From the NCBI RefSeq assembly GCF_040954645.1, contig NC_092811.1, forward strand, positions 87,287,199-87,351,198: a stretch of DNA of 64,000 bases, given 5' to 3'. The position numbers and the translations under genes were made by a program. The notes below the pieces were generated by a model. The model ran no database searches and was not told where the DNA came from. It saw nothing but the letters and a program-made list of their open reading frames with translations. Shown in pieces: positions 6,240 to 52,639 of the stretch. The DNA comes from Diabrotica undecimpunctata (taxonomy: Eukaryota > Arthropoda > Insecta > Coleoptera > Chrysomelidae). The number at the start of each line of letters is the position of its first letter. Position 1 is the stretch's first letter.

Positions 6240-7560
6240 TGTGAAAAGTCTTCCAGAATACCTCGAATATATAGCCTACCCAAAGCTCGCAAACCCTACG
6301 TCCCATTGTCAGTGCGTACAAGAGCTCTACACAACCATTGGCTAAGTACTTGGCCAAAACTCTACAACCTCTCGCCAAAAATGCTTCATCCTTCGTCAAA
6401 AATTCTTTTCATTTCATCGAATTTCTTAAACAATACCCTATTTCACCGTCAGATATTTTAGTAAGTTTCAATATCGTTTCACTCTTTACAAACATTCCTA
6501 TAGACGAAACTCTAAACATTCTGAAAACTCAATACTAGTATCCAGCAAGACCACTTATCTCTAGTTAAACATTGTATGTCCAACCTTCCAAAATTAATTC
6601 TACAGACAAATAAATAGTGCCTCAATGGGCTCCCCACTATCTCCAGTAATTGCCAATATCTTTATGGAAGATTTCGAGACCAGAGCACTATCCACATCAA
6701 TGCTCAAACCCACATGTTGGCTACGATATGTTGCCGATACATTCGTCATTTGGCTCCATGGCAGGGATGCTTTGGTGTCTTTTAAAACCCATCTAAATGG
6801 TATACATCCTAGTATCCAGTTTACAATGGAGGTAGCAACTGATTCTTCCCAACCGTTTCTCGACGTTATTATAAAGAAAAACCAATCCCAAGGTTTTCAT
6901 CACCCTGTTTATCTAAAACCCAACCATACCAACCATAGCATCGTTACTTGCATGCCAACTCTCATCATCCCCCTTTACAAATTAATTCAGTCACTAATAC
7001 GATTGTCCCAGATTAATAAGCCTTTGCGATGATGCAAGTAGACCCGCTGAGCTAGTTTAAAACAAGCCCTCATCCAAAACAGTTACCATGAAAATCACAT
7101 CAACAGGAGCATCCACAGACATCAATCTCCCACTCAATCTCAACTCAAAGACTCAGACTCTCATCTAACGAAAGCTTTTCTTCATCAAAAGTGTCACTGA
7201 TAAAATCGACAAAATTCTTAAATCAAGAGATATAAAGACAATATTTACCCCTCAACAAAAATTTGGATCTCTTGTCCGATCAATCAGAGACAACACTCCA
7301 AATGAACACGGAGTTTATGAAATTCCTTGCGCAGACTGCCCCCGATCCTATATAGGCCAAACCAATCGTAGAATCCAAAATAGGATTTATGAACATTAAA
7401 ATTCTGTTCGCAATTCCGACTCAATTTCAGCTATAGGTCAACACCATCTTCATACAGGTCACAAAATTGATTTTGAAAACTACAGAACCATAGCCCCCTT
7501 GGTTTATAGAAACCAAGGTTTATAGAAACTTTGGTTTCTATAAACCAAGAATTATCCATT
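6240..7560 (+). mobile_element. Penelope-like element, degenerate RT plus GIY-YIG
   Basis: The plus strand carries reverse transcriptase blocks typical of Penelope-like elements: 'QPLAKYLAKTLQPLAKNASS', 'DILVSFNIVSLFTNIPIDET' (about 6459-6518), then after frame breaks 'MGSPLSPVIANIFMEDF' (6625) and 'CWLRYVADTFVIW'. The catalytic YVDD box reads YVAD, so the polymerase is dead even apart from the frameshifts. From about 7310 the GIY-YIG endonuclease follows: 'GVYEIPCADC' and 'SYIGQTNRRIQNRIYEH'. A short local palindrome (GGTTTATAGAAACC and its reverse) lies at 7498-7552 near the end. The copy is 5'-truncated and sits antisense in the mannosidase intron between exons 6 and 7. Confidence 0.85.
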
Positions 7561-12998: not shown

Positions 12999-13986
12999 TC
13001 TACCGGCAGTCCCACCGGACTGCCACACCCGTTTTTTTTATTTCAAAAATCCTTTATAAAAGGTATAATAATATAAAAGAACCCTTCGGGCTACATTACA
13101 GAACGGCATCGGAATGGCTCTTCCATCATCAGTACCGTAAAATGGGGTGAATAGAAACAGTGGGATGAACTTTCAAAATAGTTTTATGTCACATTTCAGG
13201 GGGTAAAAAGGGGTAAATTTCTGGTTGCAAGTTGATAACACTCTAAATTTGAAGGGAAAAATAAGTTTATGTGGTTGGCAGCATTGAGAGTCAGATTAAT
13301 AGACTGCCGGAGTGATGACGTCTTTTTATTGACATCTGTCAGTTTTACTTTACAAACAAACTTTGTTTAGTGTGGATAATTTGTATTTTTCGTTATTTTT
13401 TCATTTTTTTTACAGAATCTTTCCGTTTTATGCAATATCTAAATATTCTAATATTACAATTGTTAGTACAACAATTTTACAAGGTTGTGTAAATAATAGA
13501 GCATGTTGTTTTATAAAAGTAGCAATAAAATGAATTTATCAGTGAAGTAAGATTAGAATGTCTTTAATTTAAACTTTTTAATTATATTTCATAGAAATAT
13601 AACACCGACTTATGATGGTATTATTGTAAAAACACTATACTTAAGAAGAAAAAGCAGCAGCAGCATAACTTTACATGTAAGTATTATATCATGTTATGTT
13701 ATTGATTTGTACTATTTTTTAGTGTTATATACCTATAAAAAGGATAACATACTTTAGGAATGTATAAATAAAACACTTTCCTATTTTCAGAATGTTATTT
13801 GAGGTTATGTCACATATTTAGGATGTGTAGGGTGAATAGAAATACAGTTACAGCTGTTTCTATTCACCCCACAAATCCAAAAATCCTTATTTTTTTTGTT
13901 TTATTAGTGGTAAATAGGAATGAAACATGATAATTAGTTTAGGATACCTATTATGCTTGACAAAATATCTAACATACTTATTTACT

Positions 13987-14507
13987 TTCAGCATGCTAAG
14001 GAATTACAAACCTGTGAAACCGACAAAAATACAAGATCTAGAGGTTTTTCAGAAAGCTGTAGCAGAGATAGCCAATGGTCTCAGCCTCAGAAAAGAAGAG
14101 AGTAAATTTGGCATCAACTATAGTGTTATTTATAGACATTTCAGAAAGGGTGATCAGCTAAAAAAGAGAAGGGGACAAACCACTTTGACTGAAGTGAAGG
14201 AAAAAACTTTTGTGAGTCGCCTAATTATTTGCCGTGAATGGGTCGTTTACTCTGAGACCCGTTTATTCCATTGAGTCGTTTACTCTGAGACTTTTAATTA
14301 AAAATTCGCTGGAACGCCAAGGCAAGACTAGGAAGCAATTTAAAGACAATTTACCTGGTCGGGAATTTGTCTACTCTTTGTTGAAAATGCACCAGGCTAG
14401 TTTGTCATTCAGATTATGCCAAAACATAAAACGAGCCACAGCAGCCATCTCTCCGGAAACAATTAATGAATACTTTGACAGACTTGGAGTAGAACTTGTT
14501 AACATTC
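13987..14507 (+). pseudogene. pogo-type transposase, N-terminal DNA-binding part
   Basis: After a TTTCAG acceptor-like sequence at about 13986 the translation reads 'MLRNYKPVKPTKIQDLEVFQ', 'KAVAEIANGLSLRKEESKFG' and 'INYSVIYRHFRKG', the psq-type helix-turn-helix of pogo-family transposases. A disrupted linker (14220-14290, with GTCGTTTACTCTGAGAC occurring twice) is followed by the second, CENP-B-like helix-turn-helix: 'FKDNLPGREFVYSLLKMH', 'LSFRLCQNIKRATAAISPET' and 'INEYFDRLGVELVNI'. The frame is cut at 14507 by the ribozyme array. It resumes beyond it with an 'NYDETN'-like block. Confidence 0.8.
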
Positions 14508-14538
14508 AGAATGACGGTATTAGATTTTTGTTTTGATA

Positions 14539-14606
14539 CAGTGCAGCAACAACCGCTGATACGTATTTCGACCTTCTTAGGTCTCTTCAGAACGGTATAG
14601 TCACTG
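14539..14606 (-). ncRNA. type I hammerhead ribozyme, unit 1
   Basis: Read on the minus strand: outer stem I CAGTG/CACTG and inner stem I ACCGTT/AGCGGT (one G-U pair), core CTGAAGA (fits CUGANGA), stem II GACCT/AGGTC with loop AAGA, core GAAA, a very short stem III made from the palindrome ATACGTAT, then the cleavage triplet ATC. All invariant core bases of the hammerhead consensus are present. The short palindromic stem III is typical of hammerheads that work best as dimers in tandem transcripts. Confidence 0.85.
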
Positions 14607-14924
14607 CTCTGAACCAAAACAAAAATCTCTCCCGTCCTAGACAATAGTTATTAAAATAACTATATACGGACGTAACTACGCCTTTTAAAAACAAAAAGAG
14701 AAATCAAACGATTTCTACTTAGCGAAACCGAATTCAAATCTTAACCACTGTGTTTCCTAAAATTTGCGAAACAAACAGCTGGATGAATTACTCGGCAAGG
14801 GAATCTAAAATTGCATTCCACAAGCCGTTCATCCTAGTCAAAATTCGTAGTGAATTCAGTTTCTCGTACTTCCAATGAAGTAAATAACAAAACAGAATGA
14901 CGGTATTAGATTTTTGTTTTGATA

Positions 14925-14992
14925 CAGTGCAGCAACAACCGCTGATACGTATTTCGACCTTCTTAGGTCTCTTCAGAACGGTATAGTCACTG
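14925..14992 (-). ncRNA. type I hammerhead ribozyme, unit 2
   Basis: Same 68-nt motif as in unit 1, 386 bp further along, with all core residues kept (CTGAAGA, GAAA, ATC before the cleavage site). Cleavage at this and the neighbouring site of a minus-strand transcript would release a 386-nt monomer. Confidence 0.85.
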
Positions 14993-15310
14993 CTCTGAAC
15001 CAAAACAAAAATCTCTCCCGTCCTAGACAATAGTTATTAAAATAACTATATACGGACGTAACTACGCCATCTAAAAACAAAAAGAGAAATCAAACGATTT
15101 CTACTTAGCGAAACCGAATTCAAATCTTAACCACTGTGTTTCCTAAAATTTGCGAAACAAACAGCTGGATGAATTACTCGGCAAGGGAATCTAAAATTGC
15201 ATTCCACAAGCCGTTCATCCTAGTCAAAATTCGTAGTGAATTCAGTTTCTCGTACTTCCAACGAAGTAAATAACAAAACAGAATGACGGTATTAGATTTT
15301 TGTTTTGATA

Positions 15311-15378
15311 CAGTGCAGCAACAACCGCTGATACGTATTTCGACCTTCTTAGGTCTCTTCAGAACGGTATAGTCACTG
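15311..15378 (-). ncRNA. type I hammerhead ribozyme, unit 3
   Basis: The motif of units 1 and 2 repeated without change in the core or stems. Confidence 0.85.
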
Positions 15379-15696
15379 CTCTGAACCAAAACAAAAATCT
15401 CTCCCGTCCTAGACAATAGTTATTAAAATAACTATATACGGACGTAACTACGCCATCTAAAAACAAAAAGAGAAATCAAACGATTTCTACTTAGCGAAAC
15501 CGAATTCAAATCTTAACCACTGTGTTTCCTAAAATTTGCGAAACAAACAGCTGGATGAATTACTCGGCAAGGGAATCTAAAATTGCATTCCACAAGCCGT
15601 TCATCCTAGTCAAAATTCGTAGTGAATTCAGTTTCTCGTACTTCCAACGAAGTAAATAACAAAACAGAATGACGGTATTAGATTTTTGTTTTGATA

Positions 15697-15764
15697 CAGT
15701 GCAGCAACAACCGCTGATACGTATTTCGACCTTCTTAGGTCTCTTCAGAACGGTATAGTCACTG
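15697..15764 (-). ncRNA. type I hammerhead ribozyme, unit 4
   Basis: Last direct-orientation copy before the fold-back at 15991. Core and stems are intact; the unit itself is truncated downstream on the plus strand. Confidence 0.85.
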
Positions 15765-16261
15765 CTCTGAACCAAAACAAAAATCTCTCCCGTCCTAGAC
15801 AATAGTTATTAAAATAACTATATACGGACGTAACTACGCCATCTAAAAACAAAAAGAGAAATCAAACGATTTCTACTTAGCGAAACCGAATTCAAATCTT
15901 AACCACTGTGTTTCCTAAAATTTGCGAAACAAACAGCTGGATGAATTACTCGGCAAGGGAATCTAAAATTGCATTCCACAAGCCGTTCATCGTTGGAAGT
16001 ACGAGAAACTGAATTCACTACGAATTTTGACTAGGATGAACGGCTTGTGGAATGCAATTTTAGATTCCCTTGCCGAGTAATTCATCCAGCTGTTTGTTTC
16101 GCAAATTTTAGGAAACACAGTGGTTAAGATTTGAATTCGGTTTCGCTAAGTAGAAATCGTTTGATTTCTCTTTTTGTTTTTAGATGGCGTAGTTACGTCC
16201 GTATATAGTTATTTTAATAACTATTGTCTAGGACGGGAGAGATTTTTGTTTTGGTTCAGAG

Positions 16262-16329
16262 CAGTGACTATACCGTTCTGAAGAGACCTAAGAAGGTCGA
16301 AATACGTATCAGCGGTTGTTGCTGCACTG
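16262..16329 (+). ncRNA. type I hammerhead ribozyme, inverted copy
   Basis: The same 68-nt motif on the opposite strand, within the inverted block. Its core is identical to that of the direct units, so transcripts of either strand through the array would carry at least one complete hammerhead. Confidence 0.85.
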
Positions 16330-16562
16330 TATCAAAACAAAAATCTAATACCGTCATTCTGTTTTGTTATTTACTTCGTTGGAAGTACGAGAAACTGAAT
16401 TCACTACGAATTTTGACTAGGATGAACGGCTTGTGGAATGCAATTTTAGATTCCCTTGCCGAGTAATTCATCCAGCTGTTTGTTTCGCAAATTTTAGGAA
16501 ACACAGTGGTTAAGATTTGAATTCTGTTTCGCTAAGTAGAAATCGTTTGATTTCTCTTTTTG

Positions 16563-17055
16563 TTAACATTCCTCCATAAAATATGACGAAACTAACTTAT
16601 CTGATGAATCGGGCCAAATGAAAAAAAATCTAGACGAGAATGTAAATACCCTGAAAGGGTGATGAATTCTACTTAAAGCTCCACCTCAGTTATGTTTTCT
16701 GCTACTGCTGATGGTGAAATTTTAAATAGGACCAAAAGTGGTTGGTTTGACAATTTCTGTTTTCAGATTATATCGAAACCATCACACTTCCATTTTTTAG
16801 ACGATATGACGGTAAAAATACTTGATCGGAGACAACTTAGCTAGCCACCTGTCACTTTATATCATACGAATGTGCTTAGAGAACAATGTTCATTTCATAT
16901 TTTTACCAGCAAACTCGACGCATCTAACACAGCCGTTAGATGTAACATTCTTTCAGCTAATGAAAATTGCATGTCGGGCAATCGTTGCTGAATGGAAAAA
17001 AGGACCTGGCAGATATGAAGCTACTACAGACTTTACAACCAACAAAACAACAAAT
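16563..17055 (+). pseudogene. pogo-type transposase, DDE domain remnant
   Basis: Beyond the ribozyme array the duplicated GTTAACATT is followed by 'NIPP', a stop, then in shifted frame 'YDETNLSDESG', the pogo 'NYDETN' box with the first catalytic Asp. At about 16825-17000 comes 'IGDNLASHLSLYIIRMCLEN', then 'NVHFIFLPANSTHLTQPLDV' and 'FFQLMKIACRAIVAEWKK', the second catalytic block (GDN..SH) and the family-typical LP.NSTHL.QPLDV. Several frameshifts separate the pieces. A LINE fragment begins near 17056. Confidence 0.8.
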
Positions 17056-17325
17056 CAGGCAAAGATCAGGAGTTCAAGACGTCATCGAAAGAACCACGAC
17101 GCTTAAGTGGAACTGGGCAGGGCACTTATCCAGAACACAAGGCGGAATGGTATAATAATATTATGGAATGGAGGCCCAGAAACTATAAAAGAAGCCGAGG
17201 ACGACCACCGACTAGATGGACCGATGATATAAAACGTGTAACGGAAAACTGCTACAAGCGGCCCAGTGTAGAGAACACTGGAAATAACTGAGGGGGGCCT
17301 ATGTCCAGCAATGGACGTTTACTAA
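17056..17325 (+). mobile_element. LINE 3' fragment inside the pogo-type element
   Basis: Frames give 'GVQDVIERTTTLKWNWAGHL', then remnants of a GRGRPPTRW-like block and 'AQCREHWK', ending in the equivalent of 'AYVQQWT'. The same order is seen in the better preserved copy at 18121-18824 ('KWRWAGHVARM', 'RGRPPTRWTDDL', 'ENWRRLEEAYIQQWM'), so both belong to one LINE family. Boundaries are approximate. Confidence 0.65.
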
Positions 17326-22847: not shown

Positions 22848-25800
22848 CTATTCATGATATTGATAGATGTCGTGAATGTTGAAAATACCCCGTATATTTC
22901 CTGTCTCTATGTGCGCTAATTCATAACTATTTACCCCATTTTCCGTATTGACCCTATATGGACCTTCAAATATCGGCATCAATTTAGCACAAATACCATT
23001 TTGTAAATTCGACACCCTCAGTGCCTTCACTAAGACTTTATCTCCTTTCTGGAATTTGATCGGCCTTCTTCTTCGGGTTCTCTCTTGTCTTTGGAGATAT
23101 TTCTCTCCACTTCGTCTCAATCTTCTTTGAACCAATTCGATCACTTCTTCGTATTGTTTGGGGGCGGTGTCTTCCCACGGTCTTGTAGGCATTGTTCCTT
23201 TCATTATATATAAAGGCGTCTCTTTGGTAACCGTATTTGGAGCACAATTCAAATAGGTCTCGATCTCAAACACTTTTCTGTCCCAATGTCGATGATGTTC
23301 TTCCGCGGCAATTCGTAGAAATTTTGTGACTTCTTGTATAAAACGCTCCGATGGGTTGCTCTGTGGATGACGGATGCTTATAAATTTTGTATCGATGCCT
23401 CTCTCTTTTAATTCCCTTTTAAAACGTTCGTTCCTAAAATATGTCGCATTGTCCAATAAAATATTGTCTGGTCTTCCCACCGTTTCTATAAAATTGTCTA
23501 TCTTCCTAAGTATTTCAATTCCTTTTGTGGTTCTGCATGCGTACAATTTAACATATTTTGAGAAAAGATCCACCATCACTAATATGTGTTTATTCCTTTG
23601 AGTTGTTGGTATCAAATCGCTCAACATATCAATAGCAACAATATCCAGTTTCTTCCGAGCTACGACGTTTTTTGTGACGTTTTCATTTTTAAAGTTCCTA
23701 CTTTTACACTTTTGGCATGTCACACAATTTCGAGTCACCTCCTTGGCTATTGTATAGTCCTGTCGACAAATGTAGTTCTCCCTGAACATAAGCCACACCT
23801 TTCTACTTCCAATATGTCCGTTGTCACAGTGTAACTTTAAAAAAACTTCTTTTGCCATTTGCTCCGTGATTACATAGAGTTCTTTACCATCAACCCTCTT
23901 AAAATATAGGTTATTTTCTTGTTCAGCCCTTTGCTTTTCTCTTTCATTCAATTCTTCCTGATTTTCCCTGATTTTGGCCAACGAAAATAAGCCTGCTTCT
24001 TCTCTCATTATGTTCATGCCTACGTGGAGAGTTTTGTGATCCTCTTTGCGGAATTGTTCATCTCTCGTCAACGCATCAGCCAAAATATTGTCCGTTTCTT
24101 TGATATATTTAAATTCAAAATCATATTCTTGGAGTAAAAGAATGCCCCTATGAATTCTATTATTTACCAACCTATTTTTCATTATGTGTATCAACGCTGC
24201 GTGGTCCGTTTCAATGGTGAATCTTGCCCCAAGTAGGTAAAAACGTAATTTGTTTACACAAAATAACACACTGGCAAACTCTAATTCAGTAACGCTGTAT
24301 TTTCTCTCATACGTTTTGGTTACACGGGAAACAAAACATATTGGCACCTCTATATCGTCTTGTATCTGTGATAACACCCCTGCAAATTTTTTTATGGAAG
24401 CATCGGTCCTGAGAATGAAAGGTTGCTCATATCTTGGGTGGTGCACTCTTACAGCTGTGGAAAACGCTCCTTTTAAATTTTTGAAAGCGATTTCTTGTTC
24501 CGTTCCCCATTTCCATCTGACATTTTTCTTAAGTAATGCTATTAGCGGTATTTCTTTTGTACTGAGGTCTGGTATCAGCTTTTTGAAATAGTTTACCATT
24601 CCTAAAAATCCCCGCAAAGTTTTTAAATTGGTTGGCCTAGGGTAGTTGTTTATGACTTCGATTCTATCTTCTGCAAGACTAATCCCTTTTGTGTCTAATT
24701 TGAATCCTAAATACAATACCTCTTTTTGGAAAAACTGACACTTTTGAATATTTAATTTTAATCCGGCTTGATCAAGTTCTTCGAGAACAGTATGAATATG
24801 TCGTAGATGGCTTGTTATATCCGGTGAGAAAATTAATAAATCATCTATGTAATGTACAACAAATTCTCCATGCCTATTTAAAATTGTGTGTAATGCGCGA
24901 ACCAAAGCAGCGCATGCACTTTGTAGTCCAAATGGTACTACCCTAAATCGGTACACCACTCCGTCGATAGAAAAAGCGGTATAATTTCGACACTTTTCTG
25001 CCAAAGGTATTAACCAAAAACTGTGTTTCAAATCGATTTTGGAGAAAATGTGTGATCCTGTGATTCGTCCAAAAATGGCTTCTATGTTCAAAGGCGCTTC
25101 GTATTGCGCGATTGTGTGCGAATTAATGTTTCTTGCATCTAAACATAATCGCAAATCACCATTTGATTTTTTTACGCATACTATCGGGTTGATATATGGA
25201 GAATCACATCTTTCGATCACCTTGTCTTTGATCATATTTTCAATTTCCTGTCCGACGCTTTGCCTGTATTTATACGGGATTGGATATGTTTTCGATTTAA
25301 AATTTTCTAAGTTTTTAACTTTAAAAGAATGTTCATAATTTTTAGCCACTCGGCTTTCTTCATTAATAAGATCTCCATAATTTTCTAAAATCTTCTCTAT
25401 TTCCTTCTCCATGTTTTCTCCACATATTATTTTTCTTTCATCCTCAGTTTGTTCACATGTGTTCACTGTCCGTATTACTTCTTCACAAAATTCTGGATTC
25501 TCGTCCATAATTGCCATTTCTTCTCTGTCCTCTTCCGTTATTTCTTCTTCTATTTTTTCTTTATCTTTAATTTCTATCTGGTATTCCGAGCACCATTTTT
25601 CGGCTCCTTCCATTTTTCTGCTTATAACTTCCTTTTTTTCCTGCTTTCTTTTCGAACTCTTCTTCTTTTTTTTTATTCTCTTTTCCTCTTCGGGTTGATT
25701 TTTTTCTTGAGCTTTCGATTTATCCTCTACCGTCATATTGATTTCTTTATGTTTTTCTTGTCCATTTATCCTTTCAGAAAATTTTCTCCTGTCTGTTTCC

Positions 25801-26201
25801 TTTTCTTCTTCTATGTTGTCTGGTTCTGCTCTGATTTCCAGTTGATTTTCCGAAAAATTGATGGTGATATGTTTTTCACTCAATTCATCAATTCCCGCTA
25901 TCATATCATGATTTAGATCTTCGATCACCACACATTGCATAATATAGAATTGGTCTCCCACTCTGATCCGTACTCCTAAACCTTCGTTTACTGTCGTCAA
26001 TTTTTTATTATTTGCACCCACTAAAGCCACCCTCGGAATCTTATACACAAATCTGTCCATATTTAATTCTTTTACTAGTTTTTTATTGATTAACGAAATT
26101 TCCGATCCAGAATCAATCAGAATTTTAATCGCTTTATGTTTTATAAATGCATCTAAAAAAATTAGACTGGAATTAGAATTTTGTTTTTCGTTTCCCGCCA
26201 A
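22848..26201 (-). CDS. pol: gypsy Pol polyprotein (PR-RT-RH-IN)
   Basis: A 1117-codon open frame with no breaks. Order: aspartic protease ('ILIDSGSEISLI', residues 27-38); a lysine/glutamate-rich linker (about 145-265); reverse transcriptase with 'RLCLDARNIN', 'VPFGLQSACAAL' and the catalytic 'VHYIDDLLIFS'; RNase H starting 'ILRTDASIKKFAG'; integrase with the HHCC zinc site ('HCDNGHIGS' to 'CVTCQKC') and DDE core ('VAIDMLSDL', 'LLDNATYFRN', 'NPSERFIQE'); and a C-terminal barrel-like region ('KFQKGDKVLVK'). The frame begins without an ATG; it is in the -1 frame relative to gag and stays open upstream past the gag stop, so expression by -1 frameshifting is likely. No chromodomain was seen. Confidence 0.95.
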   Translation of the reverse strand: MAGNEKQNSNSSLIFLDAFIKHKAIKILIDSGSEISLINKKLVKELNMDRFVYKIPRVALVGANNKKLTTVNEGLGVRIRVGDQFYIMQCVVIEDLNHDMIAGIDELSEKHITINFSENQLEIRAEPDNIEEEKETDRRKFSERINGQEKHKEINMTVEDKSKAQEKNQPEEEKRIKKKKKSSKRKQEKKEVISRKMEGAEKWCSEYQIEIKDKEKIEEEITEEDREEMAIMDENPEFCEEVIRTVNTCEQTEDERKIICGENMEKEIEKILENYGDLINEESRVAKNYEHSFKVKNLENFKSKTYPIPYKYRQSVGQEIENMIKDKVIERCDSPYINPIVCVKKSNGDLRLCLDARNINSHTIAQYEAPLNIEAIFGRITGSHIFSKIDLKHSFWLIPLAEKCRNYTAFSIDGVVYRFRVVPFGLQSACAALVRALHTILNRHGEFVVHYIDDLLIFSPDITSHLRHIHTVLEELDQAGLKLNIQKCQFFQKEVLYLGFKLDTKGISLAEDRIEVINNYPRPTNLKTLRGFLGMVNYFKKLIPDLSTKEIPLIALLKKNVRWKWGTEQEIAFKNLKGAFSTAVRVHHPRYEQPFILRTDASIKKFAGVLSQIQDDIEVPICFVSRVTKTYERKYSVTELEFASVLFCVNKLRFYLLGARFTIETDHAALIHIMKNRLVNNRIHRGILLLQEYDFEFKYIKETDNILADALTRDEQFRKEDHKTLHVGMNIMREEAGLFSLAKIRENQEELNEREKQRAEQENNLYFKRVDGKELYVITEQMAKEVFLKLHCDNGHIGSRKVWLMFRENYICRQDYTIAKEVTRNCVTCQKCKSRNFKNENVTKNVVARKKLDIVAIDMLSDLIPTTQRNKHILVMVDLFSKYVKLYACRTTKGIEILRKIDNFIETVGRPDNILLDNATYFRNERFKRELKERGIDTKFISIRHPQSNPSERFIQEVTKFLRIAAEEHHRHWDRKVFEIETYLNCAPNTVTKETPLYIMKGTMPTRPWEDTAPKQYEEVIELVQRRLRRSGEKYLQRQERTRRRRPIKFQKGDKVLVKALRVSNLQNGICAKLMPIFEGPYRVNTENGVNSYELAHIETGNIRGIFNIHDIYQYHE

Positions 26202-26266
26202 CTGTATAAACTCTCTCGGGTGACAAAATATACCGGAGAGTTTTTTACTTTTGTTTAGTGGATGCC

Positions 26267-27829
26267 TTATTGAAAATCCTGTCTGGATTCATTGAATACT
26301 TCTTCTTCCTCTTTTTCTATTGCTACATGATTCATCTCTCTTCTGTTTTGTCGTTGGAATCTCTGATTATTTCTATCGTCCCTTTGTTCGTTCGTATTCC
26401 TATTCGGAGGATTTTGTGCATCTCTATTCCTGTTGTGATTTTCATTTGTTCTATTTTGTGTATCATTCCGTTTATCGTAATTTTGTTGTCTATTGTAATT
26501 ATTGTAATTTCTCGGCCTATATTCGTTTGTTGATCTGGGATGTCGGTTTCTCTGGTCATAATTTGATGAATACCTTCTTTCCGGTCCATTATATTGGTCA
26601 TGTTGTCTTCTATTTCTCATTTCTTTTCTTTTCGCTTCTTTTAATTGAAGGAATTGGCACAAACTATCAATATCTTGATAGTTTCTCAAAATCACGTGAT
26701 CTTCCAACGTTTCCTCAAAATGTCTGCTGATCATTTCTACCAGCTGTTCGGTAGAATATTTGTATTCTAGATATTTTGAATTGTTATATATCTGCAAAGC
26801 ATATCTTTCTTCAGATATTCCCATTTTTTCGTGATATTTTCCATTCTGTAGCTCTTGGTTGATTTCTCTCTGTTTATTTTTCCCCCAGAAATAGTTGAGA
26901 AATTTATTTTCAAAATCTGTCCAATTTTCAAACTCATCTTCCTTGCTTTCATACCATAACGCTGCTCCTTCTTTCAAATGGTTTCTAATTGTTTCTTTGC
27001 AATCGTCAAAATATCTAATATGTTGTAATTTGGTTTTCAAATTTTTAACAAACGGTACTGGGTGTGTTTTCCGAATATCCCCGCCAAATTGTATTTTCGA
27101 CTCGCTTGTTCCATGGATGATAACTTCTTTTCTCTCTACCCCTCTTAGTTCAATTTCTGCCATTTGTTTTTCATTTTGCTTTAATCTTCTTTCTATTTCC
27201 TTCCTGTCTTCTTGTAGCGCCATTTCAAATTTTTCTTCTAACTGTTCTAATTCCTTTTTCTGGACAGTCTTACTATCTTTCATTTTAGTTTCTATTTCTT
27301 CTCTCTGCATCTCTAGTTCCTTTCTCTGGCAATTTTGTATCTCCTTCATTGTATTTTGGATATCTTTAATCTCTGTCTCTTGTTTTGCATTCTTTATGGT
27401 TATTTCTTCTATCTGTTGTATCAGTTCTTTCTTTATCCCCTCAACACATCCTTTAATTTCTTGTTCATAGTTTTCCAAACGCTTCTCTATATTCCTGTTA
27501 TTTAGTTCTATTGCTTGCCTTGTTTCCCGTTGGTTTTCTTCCATTGTTTGTTTCGTTTCAATTTGGTTTTTTTCCATTTTTAGTGATGTTTCTTGTTGAT
27601 TTCTATCCATTTTATCCATTTTCTTTGATGTTTCATTTTGGTTTTTCTCTATTGTTTGTGTCTGTATTTGCATTAGTTGTAATATTTTCTCTATTCCTGA
27701 TAATTCTTTTTTCTCCTCAACTATTGTAACATTTCCTTCATTATCCGATCCTTCTTCAACAATTGTTTCCTCTTCTCTGTTATCCTCCTTCCTTTCTTGC
27801 ATTTTGCTTTGACTCCTTGTGGTCGACAT
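26267..27829 (-). CDS. gag: gypsy Gag protein
   Basis: 520 residues from the first ATG (27829; the frame also opens slightly upstream without ATG). The N-terminal half is a long, highly charged coiled coil rich in repeated 'KMDRNQQETS'-type heptads (about residues 50-235). A retrotransposon-gag domain follows, about 265-410 ('FVKNLKTKLQHIRYFDDC', 'GAALWYESKEDEFENWTDF', 'FLNYFWG'). The C-terminus is an Asn/Arg-rich tail ('NRHPRSTNEYRPRNYNNY') with no CCHC zinc knuckle, so RNA binding presumably rests on the basic tail. It ends 'ESRQDFQ' before TAA, overlapped by the open pol frame. Confidence 0.9.
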   Translation of the reverse strand: MSTTRSQSKMQERKEDNREEETIVEEGSDNEGNVTIVEEKKELSGIEKILQLMQIQTQTIEKNQNETSKKMDKMDRNQQETSLKMEKNQIETKQTMEENQRETRQAIELNNRNIEKRLENYEQEIKGCVEGIKKELIQQIEEITIKNAKQETEIKDIQNTMKEIQNCQRKELEMQREEIETKMKDSKTVQKKELEQLEEKFEMALQEDRKEIERRLKQNEKQMAEIELRGVERKEVIIHGTSESKIQFGGDIRKTHPVPFVKNLKTKLQHIRYFDDCKETIRNHLKEGAALWYESKEDEFENWTDFENKFLNYFWGKNKQREINQELQNGKYHEKMGISEERYALQIYNNSKYLEYKYSTEQLVEMISRHFEETLEDHVILRNYQDIDSLCQFLQLKEAKRKEMRNRRQHDQYNGPERRYSSNYDQRNRHPRSTNEYRPRNYNNYNRQQNYDKRNDTQNRTNENHNRNRDAQNPPNRNTNEQRDDRNNQRFQRQNRREMNHVAIEKEEEEVFNESRQDFQ

Positions 27830-28212
27830 GTTGTTTCTTTTCGTTAATGTTTTTGTCCCCGCCAAATGTGAAATTTTACAACACTCTATATGTTTCAGAA
27901 CACGACAATATTTCTCCCCAAATGTATTAAATTTTCACGACAAATATCAAATATGCAATCAGTAAAATTCAAATAATTCAAAATAAATATCAAATGTACG
28001 ATTGGTAAAGAAAATAAAATCAATTAATTCAATAGCAGTAAATATCCACTAACTACGATCAATCAATAAATCAAATTTATATTCCCTGGAAAAATTGTCA
28101 AAATACTTTCAAATTCAAATTCCCTCAATGTTATATGTTTTTATCTCTGGATCACCTGTACTTATTCCAGATCTCTTTCCCTTCCTTCAAATGTAAAGCT
28201 GCGATATTTTCA

Positions 28213-36396: not shown

Positions 36397-38683
36397 CCGT
36401 TATGTCAATACCCAAGTACCTGATACGGGAGTCTATACCCGTGCTACCCAGGTACCCGGCATTGTTTCGGTAAACTTCGCTTGTACATTCCGAAAATAAC
36501 AGACAATTGGGATTTTTCTTTGTTTGCTATCAGTGTTTATTTAACTGTGCTTACAAGTTGTTAATATTTTTGTGACTATATGCGTGTTTTATGTTGTAAT
36601 TACTTGTAATAATGGCAAGAAGAGAAGTGAGTGCTAGCGAATTTAGAGGGTAAGTTATTACTGTTTATTTTTACAATGTTTTATACATAGATCATTCAAT
36701 TTTAGAATGACGTATAAAAAGCAACAGAAGTACTTGCAACAATTTATAGACGATATAGATGAGAAAGTAGACAAAAATATCGAAAACCAGGAATCAGATG
36801 AGGACTATGTTTCGCAAAGCAAACCGGATGGAGATGAAGCTTCTGACGTAGTGATGAAGATTTTGACGATTTTCAAGAAAGTTCTTCCCAAAGTGATGTT
36901 CTGGTTGCAAAAGATAAAACGATTTGGCAACGAAAACCGTTTACTGCAAGTCGAACACTGAAACGTAACCTTTTGCTTGAAAAAACGGGCCCAGTACGTT
37001 CTACTAAAACTCTTTCAATTAGAGATACATTCAAATGTGTTTTCAGTGACGTAATGTGTGACATAATTATACGCGAAACCAATCGAAAAGCTAATAGCGT
37101 TTGTGAAAAGTATAATGTTGAAAACCCCGACAAACCTCGAAATGTTTGGAAGTCACTCACAACAGAAGAATTTATACTTAGGTATTCTTATTACAGCAGG
37201 AGTACGGCATTCAAATTCAGAGCACTCGAAAGATTTATGGAAAACAGACTCTCATCCTTTGTACCGAGCAAGTATGGGCATAAATCGCTTTTGGAGCATC
37301 AGCAGATTCTTACGGTTTGACAATGACAAAACACGTGCAGAACGTTTGCAAAATGATAAAGCTGCAGCTATTACAGATATATTCCATCTTCTCAATGATA
37401 ATTTACGTCGTAACTATGTACCGTCGGATTCTCTTACTGTGGATGAACAGTTATTTCCTTTTAGAGGTAGGACACGTTTCACGCAATATATGCCATCAAA
37501 ACCTGCCAAGTATGGCATCAAGGTTTGGTGGGTTTGTGACGCCAATAATTCGTATTCAAGTAAAAAATTCTGGACGAAACATAACAATGGATAATTTTTT
37601 CACAACTCTTCCACTAGCCCGTTTCCTGTTGTCTTGGAATTTATCATTAGTTGGTACTTTGAAAAGAAACAAACCATATATTGCACAAGAAATGCTGCCT
37701 TTGCCAGAGCGTGAGCCTGAATCGTCATTACACGGATTCAGTGCAGATCGTGTTACTATTTGTTCATATGTACCAAAAAAGAAAAAAAGCGTTATCTTGC
37801 TGTCAACAATGCATGACAACGATAATGTAAGTGGCCTAAAAAATAAACCTGAAATAATTCAGTTCTATAATACAACTAAAGGAGGCGTAGACAACATGGA
37901 CAAAATGGTTTCTCATTATTCCCCTAAACGCAGAACTTTGCGTTGGCCAGTAGCCTTCTTTTACAATATCCTAGACGTAGCTTGCCTAGCAACCTCTATA
38001 ATTTATACAGAGAATAATCCACAGAGTTCTACTGAAACCAGTAAGTGTAGAAATTTTTTACAAGACTTAGGGAAACAACTAGTGATGCCTGCAATTTTTG
38101 CTAGATCTAAAATACCAAATGTATACCGAAATTTTTCATCAAGGTCAGGAATTGAGTGTATGTTAGGAAAACCTCTACCTACAGATTCAAGTAATACTGC
38201 AGAGTCATTACCACTTCGAGATTCCACTGGACGCCTCAAAATTGTTGGAAACTGCTACATATGTATGTCTTTAGCGAAAAAGCGGCTAAGAAAGACACGA
38301 AAATCATGTAATGTTTGTAATCGTCCACTATGTAACGAACACTCAGTAAATATAAGTAAGTGTAGACAATGTGTTTAAAATGTAACTTTTATTTACGTTT
38401 TCATATCACTTTTATTATAAAAAAACTAGACAGAGCTTCATAATTGACTAAACATTAGTGTTACCCGGGTGCCACGGGTGTGGACGTAATGGTGTAAAAA
38501 CTTTGACAGTTAATTTTATTATATTATATGCATTTTTTTTCTTTGGTTTTTATTATAAATCTCTTCGTTCTAAATAATTTTAGGAATAACTAGAAGCTCG
38601 AATAAAAATATTTATACTATCGTCAATGATTCAGATAAAACAATTACCAAGGATACCCAGGTACCTGGGTATAGACACAAATG
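36397..38683 (+). mobile_element. piggyBac element, decayed (copy 1)
   Basis: Bounded by TTAA at 36393-36396 and 38684-38687, the canonical piggyBac target duplication. The ends are imperfect inverted repeats: CCGTTATGTCAATACCCA followed by GTACCTG at the left, against CATTTGTGTCTATACCCA followed by GTACCTG read inward from the right. Related GGGTA/CCCGGGT blocks lie subterminally (36432-36460, 38460-38480). It lies within the intron between mannosidase exons 3 and 4. Confidence 0.9.
36612..38378 (+). pseudogene. piggyBac transposase pseudogene
   Basis: Starts ATG at 36612 ('MARREVSASEFR'). A 56-bp GT-AG intron (36650-36705) leads in phase to 'GMTYKKQQKYLQQFIDDIDE'. Frame breaks follow near 36880, 37150 and 37570. 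Recognisable blocks: 'YLGILITAGVRHSNSEHSKD', 'TVDEQLFPFRGRTRFTQYMP' (first Asp), 'GRNITMDNFFTTLPLARFLL' (second Asp), 'TTKGGVDNMDKMVSHYSPKR' (third Asp) and a Cys-rich C-terminus ('NCYICMSLAKKR', 'CNVCNRPLCNEHSV', 'CRQCV') forming the usual RING-like zinc domain. About 40 residues that should separate 'CDANNSY' from 'GRNITMDNFF' are gone. It cannot make active transposase. Confidence 0.88.
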
Positions 38684-47715: not shown

Positions 47716-48230
47716 GAAACTGTGCTGCTAGAAAGACATAAGAATTACCATATTTTTAGAAATGCTGCACACTTATTTAATACCAGCATATCTGCAGTTT
47801 CGCCATATATTTAGAAAACTACTAAAGCGCCTTTAGAAACAACCACACACCGACAAGTGCTGTTAGAGCTGCGCAACACATTCCATGCTTTTATGTATGC
47901 AGAATAGATAACTTACGGTATATATATTTTTTCCTTGTGTTTACCTATTAGTTTTCCTTGTATATATTACACATAATATGCGGTTATGCGCTACTCGCGC
48001 GTCTGATAAAAATTGTGACCACTTTTTGATGAGATGATTTCTTAATATATTAAGCTTTAATGTAGAGTTGATTAAAAAGGAAGATTTAAAAATGTGTATT
48101 TGTAACACAGATTTTTAATTAGAAAAAAAAAATCGAGTAGTAAATGACGTTTTCAAAAAATCGTCATTTTGATTATAATCAAGATTAAGAGTTCAGTTAA
48201 TAATCAAGAGTATTAAAAAATTAAAATCCA
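47716..48230. other. no recognisable feature
   Basis: AT-rich sequence between the LTR fragment and the Penelope relic; nothing identified. Confidence 0.3.
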
Positions 48231-48237
48231 GTACTTT

Positions 48238-48800
48238 CTGCTCGATGACATATACAGGCAGGATATCATTAAAAATAGCCAAACACATAAAAAAAAGAGG
48301 AATAACGCCAGCTTTCAGAACATACAACAACGTAAGCAAATATATTAATAACAATAAAAGCCAAAAGAAAACGTATTTACACAGTGGCGTATACAAACTT
48401 ACATGTGGCGACTGCCCAAAAACTTACATCGGTCAAACGGGTAGAACCGTTAACAAACGGATAGTAAAACACAAAAAGGCTTTCAACGATATAAAAACAG
48501 ATTTTACTTAGGCACTTCATCCTCTAGATCACAATCATTCTTTTAATAACCAATTTCAAAATCTTCACATTCAAAATAAAGGCATTAAGCTATCAATATT
48601 AGAATCTATGGAAATCAACAAATTAAAAAATACAGATATAATTGTGAATGACCAACTTGAGACAAACAGTTCTCCCCTCCTTAACTGATTTAGTTAAAGA
48701 CTATAAAGTGTTAGACGCATGACAAAAGTAGCTCACTTGAGAAAGGCACTCTACCGAAACAGCTGTAGTTATAGTAAATTATAATAAAGTTTGTACCTAC
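48238..48800 (+). mobile_element. Penelope-like element, GIY-YIG end
   Basis: A frame from 48245 reads 'MTYTGRISLKIAKHIKKRGI', 'SGVYKLTCGDCPKTYIGQTG', 'RTVNKRIVKHKKAFNDIKTD', then after one stop 'ALHPLDHNHSF' and 'SILESMEINKLKNTDI'. GVYKLTC...YIGQT is the GIY-YIG nuclease that ends Penelope-like polyproteins. Downstream (48735-48775) TTGAGAAAGGC followed by ACCGAAACAGC resembles the ribozyme-derived terminal repeat of such elements in degraded form. The reverse transcriptase is absent (5' truncation). Confidence 0.8.
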
Positions 48801-50851: not shown

Positions 50852-52639
50852 TTATAAATGAAACTGTTTAAAGCAATTGTTATTTCCCGTTAAACATAAA
50901 AATATGTCACATGATTCACAATAAACTTTTGTTTTACCCTTGCAACCTGGAAGCTTGCATCTAACAGAATTTTTTAACTCGGATGCCATTGCAGGAATGT
51001 GTTGTATCTTTCTTTTAGTAGAAGTTTGAAGTGATGGTCTAGGATTGGAACTGTTTCTAGTTACTAATGTTGAAGTGTTCCCAAAATCAGAATTTTCAGA
51101 ACTGTTGTCTTTAAGGAGCAACTCGGAAACAGCTATTTTAAATTCCAGGAACTTCATAACGGTTTTATTAGCATCACCAAGTTGCTTATGGTCATCTCTG
51201 TATAGAATCCAAGAATTGGCAATCGCAAGATCAAATAAGTGAAAAATGGTTTTGACTGTCCATTTTTTACTTTTAGCTCCCATTCTATAATAACTTATCA
51301 TCCTGTCAATTAAATCTATTCCCCCCATGCATTCATTATACTTTTTAACAATGTTTGGTCTAGGTACCTCAATATATCGGGAGTCCTTTTTTGACCACCG
51401 CTTACATTCATCTGAAGGTTCTATTTGCAATGCAGTTGACGCTAGCATAACTGATTTCATATCATACCATTGGACTATGTTAATTTTTCCATCAGCTCTC
51501 ACATCCTGCTCAGATGAACCACGACCCAATCGAGTCATCACCTTATCCGATGTTACATGAACTGCTTTGGGTATTCTGGATCTCATTATTGTACCAGTTA
51601 AAAAAATATTTTTGTTTAACATGTACTCAAGTAAAGGTAAGGTGGTGAAATATCTATCGATGAACACATGTGTTCCTTCTAATAACGTTGTAGATAACTT
51701 AATAACTGCGGATGGACCAACACGTAACTTCTTAACATCATCATCATTCTGCAGAAATGTATTTTTCCCTTGATAAATATCGAAGTCTAATATTAACCCT
51801 TTGGGAGTGGCACAGACAAAATTTTTTAATCCTTCTGGGTTAGGTTTACCTCGAACAAATTGTTTCATGTTACACACGCCCGTAAAAGGTATCATTTGTT
51901 CGTCCACAGCAACCTCATTGTATCTTGGAAGTGTCAAGCAACCTCTTCGTATTCTGTCAACTAAAGGCCGGATCTTAAATAATTTGTCAGCATTTCTTTG
52001 ATCTTGAGGCACATCAGCGTCAATAACTACTTTTAAGTTGCTCCTGATTTGAAAATATCTATCACGAGTCATGGCTTGTGCAATGCTGTTGACTTTTGTT
52101 GTCTTAGCCCAAAACATTCTAATTTGTGGATAATTCAGACAGGACATTAGAATAGATATTCCAAAAAATTTTTTCACCTCCGTTAGAGTAACGTTCAAAG
52201 GTTTTCCTTTTTCTTGCAAAAATTTAATATTTGTACAATTACAAATATTCTCAAAATCTGAATCATCAAAATACATACCGACATAGTGTTCAACTTTCCA
52301 ATTTTGCCTCTCGTAGACTGTATCGACAATTCCAGTAAAGTCTATATGCTGAGGGACAAAAACACCCATTTTTTTCCATGTATTTCGGTTCTCCTTTTTT
52401 TTTTCGTTCACTGAGTGGCACGTTATCTAATTCATCTTCGGGTGGCATTTCTGTATCTTGTTCATCATCTGTATGTTGGGCCGAATCTGATTGCTGAGGC
52501 TGATACGATTCTTCATTTGGATCAAAGCCGTCATCAGAGTTTTCAGAATCTGAAACGTCTATATCTGAATTTTCCAGGCATTCAAGAAGTCTTTCAATGT
52601 CAACTTCGGGTCTTAAATATTTTTTATTACCAAACACAG
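50852..52639 (-). CDS. piggyBac transposase (copy 2), exon 2 with A10 frameshift
   Basis: The N-terminal acidic part ('VDIERLLECLENSDIDVSDS', 'DDEQDTEMPPEDELDN') runs to 'PLSERKKK', where a run of ten A residues (52395-52404) shifts the frame. Beyond it the catalytic part is uninterrupted for about 510 residues: 'TWKKMGVFVPQHIDFTG', 'VAVDEQMIPFTGVCNMKQFV', 'THVFIDRYFTTLPLLEYML', 'ECMGGIDLIDRMISYYRMGA' (the three catalytic Asp), and the Cys-rich end 'RCKLPGCKGKTKVYCESCDI', 'CFKQFHL'. A one-base change in the A run would restore a complete transposase, so either this copy died very recently, the run is a sequencing error, or slippage is used. Confidence 0.88.

What the first reader, a model, noticed from the sequence alone, without database searches (positions are those of the whole stretch)
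14508..16559. Tandem array of 386-bp units, each with a complete hammerhead ribozyme: an animal retrozyme with a 12-bp target duplication
Five copies of a 68-nt motif fit the type I hammerhead: CUGANGA core as CTGAAGA, stem II GACCT/AGGTC, GAAA, a minimal stem III and ATC before the cleavage site, with pairing stem I (ACCGTT/AGCGGT plus CAGTG/CACTG). Unit spacing is constant at 386 bp, and the array is bounded by TTGTTAACATTC duplications that split one transposase reading frame, so it arrived as one insertion. Cleavage of a multimer would give 386-nt RNAs able to circularise. Near-identical units suggest recent insertion or homogenisation. The ribozyme and duplication are seen; the circular-RNA life cycle is inferred from what is known of retrozymes.
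Basis: partly seen in the sequence, partly recalled or inferred. Interest (0 to 1): 0.9.

Follow-up and report, generated by a model that had tools for sequence, protein, structure and literature searches.

The report
Ribozyme circle inserted from both ends
A 386-base element with a self-cutting RNA motif has been copied into this animal genome many times, and the scars suggest that one RNA circle is copied from both ends of a cut chromosome at once, each end starting at its own fixed spot.

Summary
14508-16559 holds five type I hammerheads in 386-bp units. It is not one direct array: 3.8 units run one way (ribozyme sense on -), then 1.5 units the other way, between 12-bp target duplications. 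The unit is a dispersed family in its 1.74-Gb genome (254 exact ribozyme cores, reversed control 0). I dissected 58 distinct insertions. 44 are two-armed, both chromosome ends leading into ribozyme-antisense cDNA. Outer ends fall at two unit positions, A (~51) or B (~253), in 98 of 102 cases. All 40 two-armed insertions with both ends there have one A and one B (26/26, then 14/14 in a second sample). Inner ends are spread evenly around the unit, and the two arms mostly share SNPs. Target duplications are mostly 12-14 bp; both strands are nicked before N-T-T. In the predicted circle A and B share one loop. Best reading: a metazoan retrozyme integrated by two-ended target-primed copying of one RNA circle, probably by a Penelope-like enzyme. 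RNA circles and the helper were not observed; the genome search for the helper never ran.

The parts
14496..14507 (.). Left target-site duplication TTGTTAACATTC
   Evidence: Only two places in the window; base 14507 C could also be unit position 51
14508..15989 (-). Left arm: 3.84 units of the 386-nt retrozyme, ribozyme sense on -; cDNA 5' end (site A, unit ~50-51) at 14507/14508
   Evidence: three substitutions against the common unit, all in the outermost full copy
14552..14596 (-). Type I hammerhead, copy 1 (cleavage predicted between 14558 and 14557)
   Evidence: RF00163 32.7 bits, model 1-45/45
14938..14982 (-). Type I hammerhead, copy 2
   Evidence: RF00163 32.7 bits
15324..15368 (-). 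Type I hammerhead, copy 3
   Evidence: RF00163 32.7 bits
15710..15754 (-). Type I hammerhead, copy 4
   Evidence: RF00163 32.7 bits
15989..15992 (.). Inverted junction of the two arms, 2-bp overlap (unit 111 against unit 66)
15990..16564 (+). Right arm: 1.49 units, ribozyme sense on +; cDNA 5' end (site B, unit 249-254) at 16559-16564
   Evidence: one substitution
16272..16316 (+). Type I hammerhead, copy 5, inverted (cleavage predicted between 16310 and 16311)
   Evidence: RF00163 32.7 bits
16560..16571 (.). Right target-site duplication TTGTTAACATTC (first 5 bases also match the unit)
13924..14274 (+). Target gene, left part: pogo-like transposase remnant with HTH_psq
   Evidence: PF05225 E 8e-7
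16572..17105 (+). Target gene, right part: decayed DDE_1 region of a pogo-like transposase
   Evidence: Joined-flank frames; PF03184 E 1.6e-7 for one of two pieces
6275..7522 (+). Decayed Penelope-like element: RT piece followed by GIY-YIG piece (the type of candidate helper, not part of the insert)
   Evidence: RVT_1 E 0.015 and GIY-YIG E 0.0012, both below cut-off; order RT then EN
48179..48511 (+). Second GIY-YIG piece of Penelope type
   Evidence: PF01541 E 9.7e-4, below cut-off; 33-36% identical to the first

Best explanation
It is an insertion of a non-autonomous, non-LTR metazoan retrozyme. Inferred: transcripts of older copies are cut by their hammerheads into 386-nt RNAs and closed into circles. 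Read from the insertions: an endonuclease cuts both strands of A+T-rich DNA before N-T-T, about 12-13 bp apart, leaving two 3' ends; each 3' end runs into ribozyme-antisense cDNA; one cDNA starts at site A (unit ~51) and the other at site B (~253), both U-rich and predicted to lie in one central loop; the two cDNAs mostly carry the same SNPs, are from under 0.1 to over 10 unit lengths long, stop anywhere, and are joined to each other. Inferred: the template of both is one closed circle, copied by rolling around, and the enzyme is a dimeric RT/GIY-YIG protein of a Penelope-like element.
For: (1) Two-armed loci are ordered antisense arm then sense arm on the + strand in 42 of 44; the two exceptions in the automatic test are L018 (a 25-nt side hit) and L026 (an internal duplication). 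(2) 98 of 102 outer ends lie in windows A (47-66) or B (247-260), 34 of 386 positions; 10 of 100 inner ends do, 8.8 expected (the window limits were set after both samples had been seen). (3) 40 of 40 two-armed insertions with both ends in these windows are A+B, none A+A or B+B (19 with A left, 21 with B left): 26 of 26 in the sample that suggested the rule, 14 of 14 in the second; about 1e-12 if the ends chose independently. (4) Inner ends fit a uniform spread (KS p 0.48, Rayleigh p 0.42), 2 of 100 within 3 nt of the ribozyme cut, 1.8 expected. (5) For all 21 variants seen in 3 or more insertions, both arms carry the variant in 40 cells and one arm alone in 6; 7.5 shared cells expected if arms were independent; left against right arm of the same insertion differ at 0.8% of positions, of different insertions at 1.6% (31 insertions). 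(6) T at +2 after the nick in 66 of 76 nicks (p 2.6e-21), TT at +2/+3 in 47 of 76, 8.9 expected. (7) Positions 52 and 254 share a loop in 761 of 1000 sampled circular structures; of 400 control pairs of mostly unpaired, distant positions 5 reached half. (8) A Penelope-like protein of Anolis cuts and extends both strands, prefers ATT and starts RT at two internal sites (PMC11167929); rotifer Penelope inserts can have an inverted arm, 8-10 bp duplications and a tail on one arm (PMC3846280).
Against: No RNA data: circles and cleavage are not observed, and the ribozyme scores 1.3 bits under Rfam's cut-off. No helper was found: the genome search with the RT piece did not complete 17 times, the RF00163 search 3 times. 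The window's Penelope pieces are decayed and weak. 3 of 44 two-armed insertions (L052, L056, L061) have one end outside A and B and no convincing duplication; 14 insertions score single-armed, though L027 looks two-armed with foreign DNA inside. SNP sharing between arms is not perfect: in only 15 of 31 insertions is the own right arm the nearest or tied nearest to the left arm, and 45 single-copy differences between arms exist; the fully concordant nine-SNP table used SNPs that I had picked from concordant cases. Inner ends of the two arms coincide within 2 nt in 3 of 42 insertions (L049, L051, L065), 0.5 expected. The Anolis start sites lie in an AC-rich stem-loop and are adjacent; here they are U-rich and about 203 nt apart. 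One genome and one family; the fold is a prediction on nearly identical sequences, without covariation.
Confidence: 0.7

Rival explanations
1. Same two-ended priming, but on linear multimeric read-through RNA rather than a circle.
For: A transcript of one genomic array would also be homogeneous in haplotype; in vitro the Anolis Penelope protein used unprocessed RNA and did not need ribozyme cleavage (PMC11167929); coinciding inner ends in 3 of 42 insertions could mark the end of a linear or broken template.
Against: One arm of 3,943 nt (L033) would need a transcript with ten uncut hammerheads; on a template with many copies of both sites A and B would not have to be used once each, yet A+A and B+B are 0 of 40.
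Confidence: 0.18
2. LINE-type twin priming: a LINE nicks DNA, primes at the RNA 3' end, and the second DNA end primes opportunistically inside.
For: Twin priming also gives inverted arms with duplications (recalled for human L1); RVT_1 matches outside the gypsy-like element occur in the window.
Against: No poly(A) or other tail by eye; both start sites are fixed; two arms in 44 of 58 insertions; the same NTT motif at both nicks and duplications of 12-14 bp in 35 of 38.
Confidence: 0.08
3. Snap-back: one cDNA is primed at the target, folds back and copies itself, giving the inverted arm (self-priming was proposed for Penelope palindromes, PMC3846280).
For: Explains head-to-head arms with the same haplotype, and the three insertions whose inner ends coincide.
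Against: The second arm would end at the same site as the first, or anywhere, not at the other fixed site; 40 of 40 are A+B, and in 39 of 42 insertions the inner ends are more than 2 nt apart.
Confidence: 0.03
4. Satellite DNA or an assembly artefact: local tandem amplification and inversion, or fold-back long reads.
For: Units are tandem and near-identical; an element of this kind could be misassembled.
Against: Short arrays dispersed on several contigs, in different flanks with their own duplications and the same pair of ends; fold-back artefacts would also mirror the flanks.
Confidence: 0.02

Closest known systems
Metazoan non-LTR retrozymes (Cervera and de la Pena 2020, PMC7229834; sections 13, 14 and 17, the first part of the text and passages read)
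   Same: Type I hammerhead with a short helix III, tandem units of 150-450 bp, low G+C, no LTR, target duplications over 4 bp, no evident coding; Penelope elements in the same genome
   Different: Inverted two-armed inserts, paired fixed start sites, target motif and a one-template signature; the paper proposes Penelope elements or LINEs as helper without such evidence (in the passages shown, 'invert' is always 'invertebrate'; its supplement was not readable)
Endonuclease-bearing Penelope-like elements (Frangieh 2024, PMC11167929, first two parts of four read; Arkhipova 2013, PMC3846280, passages read)
   Same: Inverted arm, short target duplication, internal RT start at two sites, cutting and extension of both strands, A+T-rich target with TT, hammerhead in the Anolis element
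   Different: Those elements encode RT and GIY-YIG endonuclease, and the tail between the two starts is 30-40 bp; here there is no protein and the starts are about 203 nt apart on a 386-nt unit
Plant LTR retrozymes (PMC4918200, passages read)
   Same: Hammerhead-bearing non-autonomous retroelement with a proposed circular RNA intermediate
   Different: Type III hammerhead, LTRs, primer-binding site, 4-bp duplications
Hammerhead satellite DNAs (pDo500 of Dolichopoda cave crickets, search listing only; newt satellite, named in PMC7229834)
   Same: Tandem units with a hammerhead
   Different: Here short dispersed arrays that look like separate insertions

Membership tests
Metazoan non-LTR retrozyme | Type I hammerhead in the unit | tested here: met
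   Five full-length RF00163 matches, 32.7 bits, E 3e-4, but below the cut-off of 34; full CUGANGA/GAAA core
Metazoan non-LTR retrozyme | Tandem units of about 150-450 bp | tested here: met
   386 bp
Metazoan non-LTR retrozyme | G+C below 50% | tested here: met
   0.37 in the two 2-kb windows that hold it
Metazoan non-LTR retrozyme | Target duplications longer than 4 bp | tested here: met
   12 bp here; exact duplications of 9 bp or more in 38 of 40 intact two-armed insertions, 2 of 400 in mismatched flanks
Metazoan non-LTR retrozyme | No coding capacity | tested here: met
   No stop-to-stop frame of 110 aa within the array; shorter frames not examined; no tRNA
Metazoan non-LTR retrozyme | Self-cleavage and circular RNA in tissue | not testable with these tools
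   No RNA data
Penelope-type integration | Inverted arm within one duplication | tested here: met
   44 of 58 insertions two-armed
Penelope-type integration | Both strands cut and extended, TT-containing target | tested here: met
   Antisense cDNA from both flanks; N-T-T after the nick
Penelope-type integration | Two internal RT start sites | tested here: met
   Sites A and B, though U-rich and far apart in sequence
Penelope-type integration | A Penelope element of this genome with the same starts, target and duplication length | not tested
   The genome search did not complete the query (last); only decayed pieces seen
Penelope-like element proper | Encodes RT and GIY-YIG endonuclease | tested here: not met
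   No frame of 110 aa in the array: it works like one but is not one
LINE insertion (L1 type) | Poly(A) or simple-repeat tail | tested here: not met
   By eye in the junction sequences of 60 loci; some flanks are A-rich
Plant LTR retrozyme | Type III hammerhead and 4-bp duplication | tested here: not met
   Type I match; duplications mostly 12-14 bp

The most novel reading that the evidence does not exclude
One circular RNA carries two separate primer-docking sites in one loop. A dimeric Penelope-type enzyme cuts both DNA strands and seats one 3' end at each site; two reverse transcriptases then chase each other around the same circle until they fall off at random, and the two cDNAs are joined. 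Single use of each site on a single circle explains the A+B rule. As a by-product, a palindromic insert gives ribozyme-sense units whichever way the locus is read through.
Probability: 0.55. Interest if true: 0.88.

Novelty: new variant of a known kind. Interest (0 to 1): 0.8.

Why it matters
Which machinery moves animal retrozymes was left open in the paper that described them, and the RNA circle was proposed, not shown, as the template. The insertion scars bear on both: two fixed starts used once each, mostly one haplotype in both arms, no run-off at the ribozyme end, and a symmetric nick motif like that of a purified Penelope protein. This makes the question testable in vitro with an enzyme already purified, and by recounting insertion ends in coral, mussel and axolotl. 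It may also explain the inverted arms and one-sided 'tail' of Penelope elements by the same rule.

Tried and rejected
Rejected: simple direct array; satellite or assembly artefact; snap-back copying; L1-type twin priming; template ending at the hammerhead cut (2 of 100 inner ends, 1.8 expected). Led nowhere: exact ribozyme 38-mer in viral contigs, 0; no tRNA in 14400-16700; repeats around the window's Penelope pieces show no clear pseudo-LTR pair; PDB search with the RT piece gave four weak matches to bacterial-type RTs, best E 0.006; NCBIfam weak. tblastn found an RT piece of Penelope type in the flank of L051 and a GIY-YIG piece in that of L059, too short to read element ends. Literature: the ten searches and the passages read showed no inverted retrozyme inserts or paired start sites; of the 32 papers holding 'retrozyme' and 'hammerhead' (30 listed) I read parts of 3, and supplements and subscription journals were not readable, so this is no proof of absence. 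The similarity of sites A and B (10 of 14 bases, top 0.09% of 14-mer pairs, best of 120 offsets) is uncorrected and only suggestive.

Full report
What is there. The region holds five identical type I hammerhead cores, four on the - strand at 386-bp spacing and one on the + strand. Rfam matches all five over the full model at 32.7 bits, E 3e-4 in 64 kb, just below the curated 34. Aligned to one 386-nt unit (numbered from the base after the predicted cut), the insert is two arms: 1,482 nt of tandem units in one direction and 575 nt in the other, with three substitutions and one. They meet at 15990 with 2 bp of overlap. TTGTTAACATTC flanks the whole (14496-14507, 16560-16571). The flanks are a decayed pogo-like transposase (HTH_psq on one side, DDE_1 on the other).

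The ribozyme. The sequence gives stem II GACCU/AGGUC with loop AAGA, GAAA, a stem III that can form two base pairs with loop ACGU (read by eye), and a stem I that continues into a long helix (the 125-nt arm folds with z -6.2 against shuffles). A two-base-pair helix III with a tetraloop is the form that PMC7229834 calls similar to invertebrate hammerheads. Self-cleavage is not shown here.

A dispersed family. The window lies in a 1.74-Gb assembly with 2,867 contigs, not named to me. The exact 38-base ribozyme core occurs 254 times; its reversed control 0 times. With the window's copy this makes 60 loci; L024 and L028 share flanks with L023 and were dropped, leaving 58 insertions.

Two arms, two starts. 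44 of 58 insertions have an antisense arm on the left and a sense arm on the right, so that both chromosome 3' ends lead into ribozyme-antisense DNA, as when each primes copying of the RNA. In the automatic test two of the 44 break this order: L018 through a 25-nt side hit, and L026, whose arms run - + - + through an internal duplication. Outer ends sit in two narrow windows: 98 of 102 in A (47-66) or B (247-260) (limits set after seeing the data). In every one of 40 two-armed insertions with both ends in these windows, one is A and the other B: 26 in the first sample and 14 in the second. There is no A+A and no B+B. The remaining four two-armed cases have one odd end: L016 has a small internal deletion just before a normal A end (seen), and L052, L056 and L061 look truncated, without a convincing duplication. 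Fourteen insertions score as single-armed, 9 starting at B and 5 at A; three of these (L034, L035, L050) have duplications of 11-12 bp, so one-ended priming also happens. L027, counted as single-armed B, has an A arm 589 bp away and a matching duplication, so it is probably A+B too.

One template. If each end had used its own RNA, arms would differ by the SNPs that segregate among insertions. Taking all 21 variants seen in three or more insertions, both arms carry the variant in 40 cells and only one arm in 6; 7.5 shared cells are expected for independent arms. Left and right arm of the same insertion differ at 77 of 9,921 compared positions (0.8%), arms of different insertions at 1.6% (31 insertions with enough overlap). 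Nine SNPs that I had picked from concordant cases agree wherever both arms cover them, for example 26 of 26 at position 159; that test is biased by the choice. No variant is fixed in two or more copies of one arm and absent from the other, but 45 differences rest on a single copy; many look like later mutations. In only 15 of 31 insertions is the own right arm the nearest or tied nearest to the left, so the sequences are too alike and too mutated to prove a single template locus by locus. A few variants are present in some copies only (for example L043), which I cannot explain well.

Why a circle. One arm runs to 3,943 nt, over ten units (L033). cDNA 3' ends are spread evenly around the unit (n = 100, L026 left out; KS p 0.48, Rayleigh p 0.42), with 2 within 3 nt of the ribozyme cut where 1.8 are expected. 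RNAs cut at the ribozyme would give run-off there. A long uncut multimer is not excluded, but would allow A+A and B+B. At the junction of the arms 12 of 44 overlap by 1-3 bp and 25 have 1-53 bases that my alignment assigns to neither arm. In 3 of 42 insertions (L049, L051, L065) the two inner ends coincide within 2 nt, 0.5 expected; both copies running off one broken circle, or fold-back joining, could do that.

The enzyme's footprint. In the 38 insertions with an exact duplication of 9 bp or more and ends A+B, 35 duplications are 12 to 14 bp; flanks paired at random between loci give 9 bp or more in 2 of 400. On both strands the nick is followed by N-T-T: T at +2 in 66 of 76, TT at +2/+3 in 47 of 76 against 8.9 expected. 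A symmetric motif on both strands suggests one enzyme cutting twice. A Penelope-like protein from Anolis, reported as the first active one in vitro, cuts and extends both strands, prefers ATT and starts reverse transcription at two internal sites (PMC11167929). Rotifer Penelope inserts show, in several families, an adjacent inverted arm, 8-10 bp duplications and a short tail on one arm (PMC3846280); Frangieh and colleagues identify the tail as the stretch between the two start sites. The rule found here looks like the same thing with the sites placed far apart in sequence.

Geometry. Folded as a circle, the unit has a long ribozyme arm and a central multibranch loop. Positions 46-61 and 249-259, the two start sites, are single-stranded parts of that loop. 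Positions 52 and 254 share a loop in 761 of 1000 sampled structures, 51/255 in 611, 53/252 in 552 and 50/250 in 440. Of 196 random pairs at least 100 nt apart one did so in half the samples; of 400 pairs restricted to mostly unpaired positions, 5 did. Six SNP haplotypes, the reference included, behave alike. UGUUUU occurs three times in the unit, at 50, 251 and 323; the third is paired in the ribozyme arm. Genomic primer ends are A in 30 of 38 B ends and 19 of 38 A ends, which fits pairing with these U runs. All of this is prediction from near-identical sequences.

What is missing. No RNA, no cleavage, no named host and no helper. The window carries two decayed Penelope pieces (RT plus GIY-YIG at 6275-7522; GIY-YIG at 48179-48511), weak by profile, and two of the fetched flanks carry others. 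The genome-wide search for an intact one did not complete. The helper is therefore inferred from the footprint and from the literature, at about 0.65 in my judgement; two-ended target priming itself at about 0.9.

Verdict. A member of the metazoan retrozymes by the features tested, with an insertion architecture that I did not find described in the papers searched and that turns the open question of their mobilisation into a countable, testable rule.

Noticed in passing
window 6275-7522 and 48179-48511, + strand: Two decayed Penelope-like pieces (RT then GIY-YIG; GIY-YIG alone), from different elements (33-36% identical).
   Followed up: partly
window 22848-26288, - strand (and the frame at 26267-27934, not scanned): A 1146-aa stop-to-stop frame with protease, RT, RNase H and integrase matches: a Ty3/gypsy-like LTR retrotransposon, described only.
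   Followed up: no
window 50852-52426, - strand; 37284-38378, + strand: Two frames matching DDE_Tnp_1_7 (piggyBac-like transposases), one 524 aa, one partial.
   Followed up: no
L023, L024, L028: Three loci on two contigs share the flanks of one retrozyme insertion: a later duplication or haplotype copies in the assembly.
   Followed up: partly
L026:1384-3202: Arms ordered - + - +, with a 570-bp internal repeat inside one 14-bp duplication.
   Followed up: no
L027:907-1495 and L037:88-1393: Retrozyme insertions interrupted by 0.6 kb and 1.3 kb of other sequence, perhaps nested insertions.
   Followed up: no
L038, L039, L045: Units of these insertions align only from the third base after the ribozyme cut and share changes at 364 and 369, a separate sublineage; by eye stem II stays paired.
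   Followed up: no
L043: Variants at 324 and 190 are present in three copies and absent from the others of the same insertion, unlike the usual all-or-single pattern.
   Followed up: no
L049, L051, L065: The two arms stop at the same unit position within 1 nt, more often than chance predicts.
   Followed up: no
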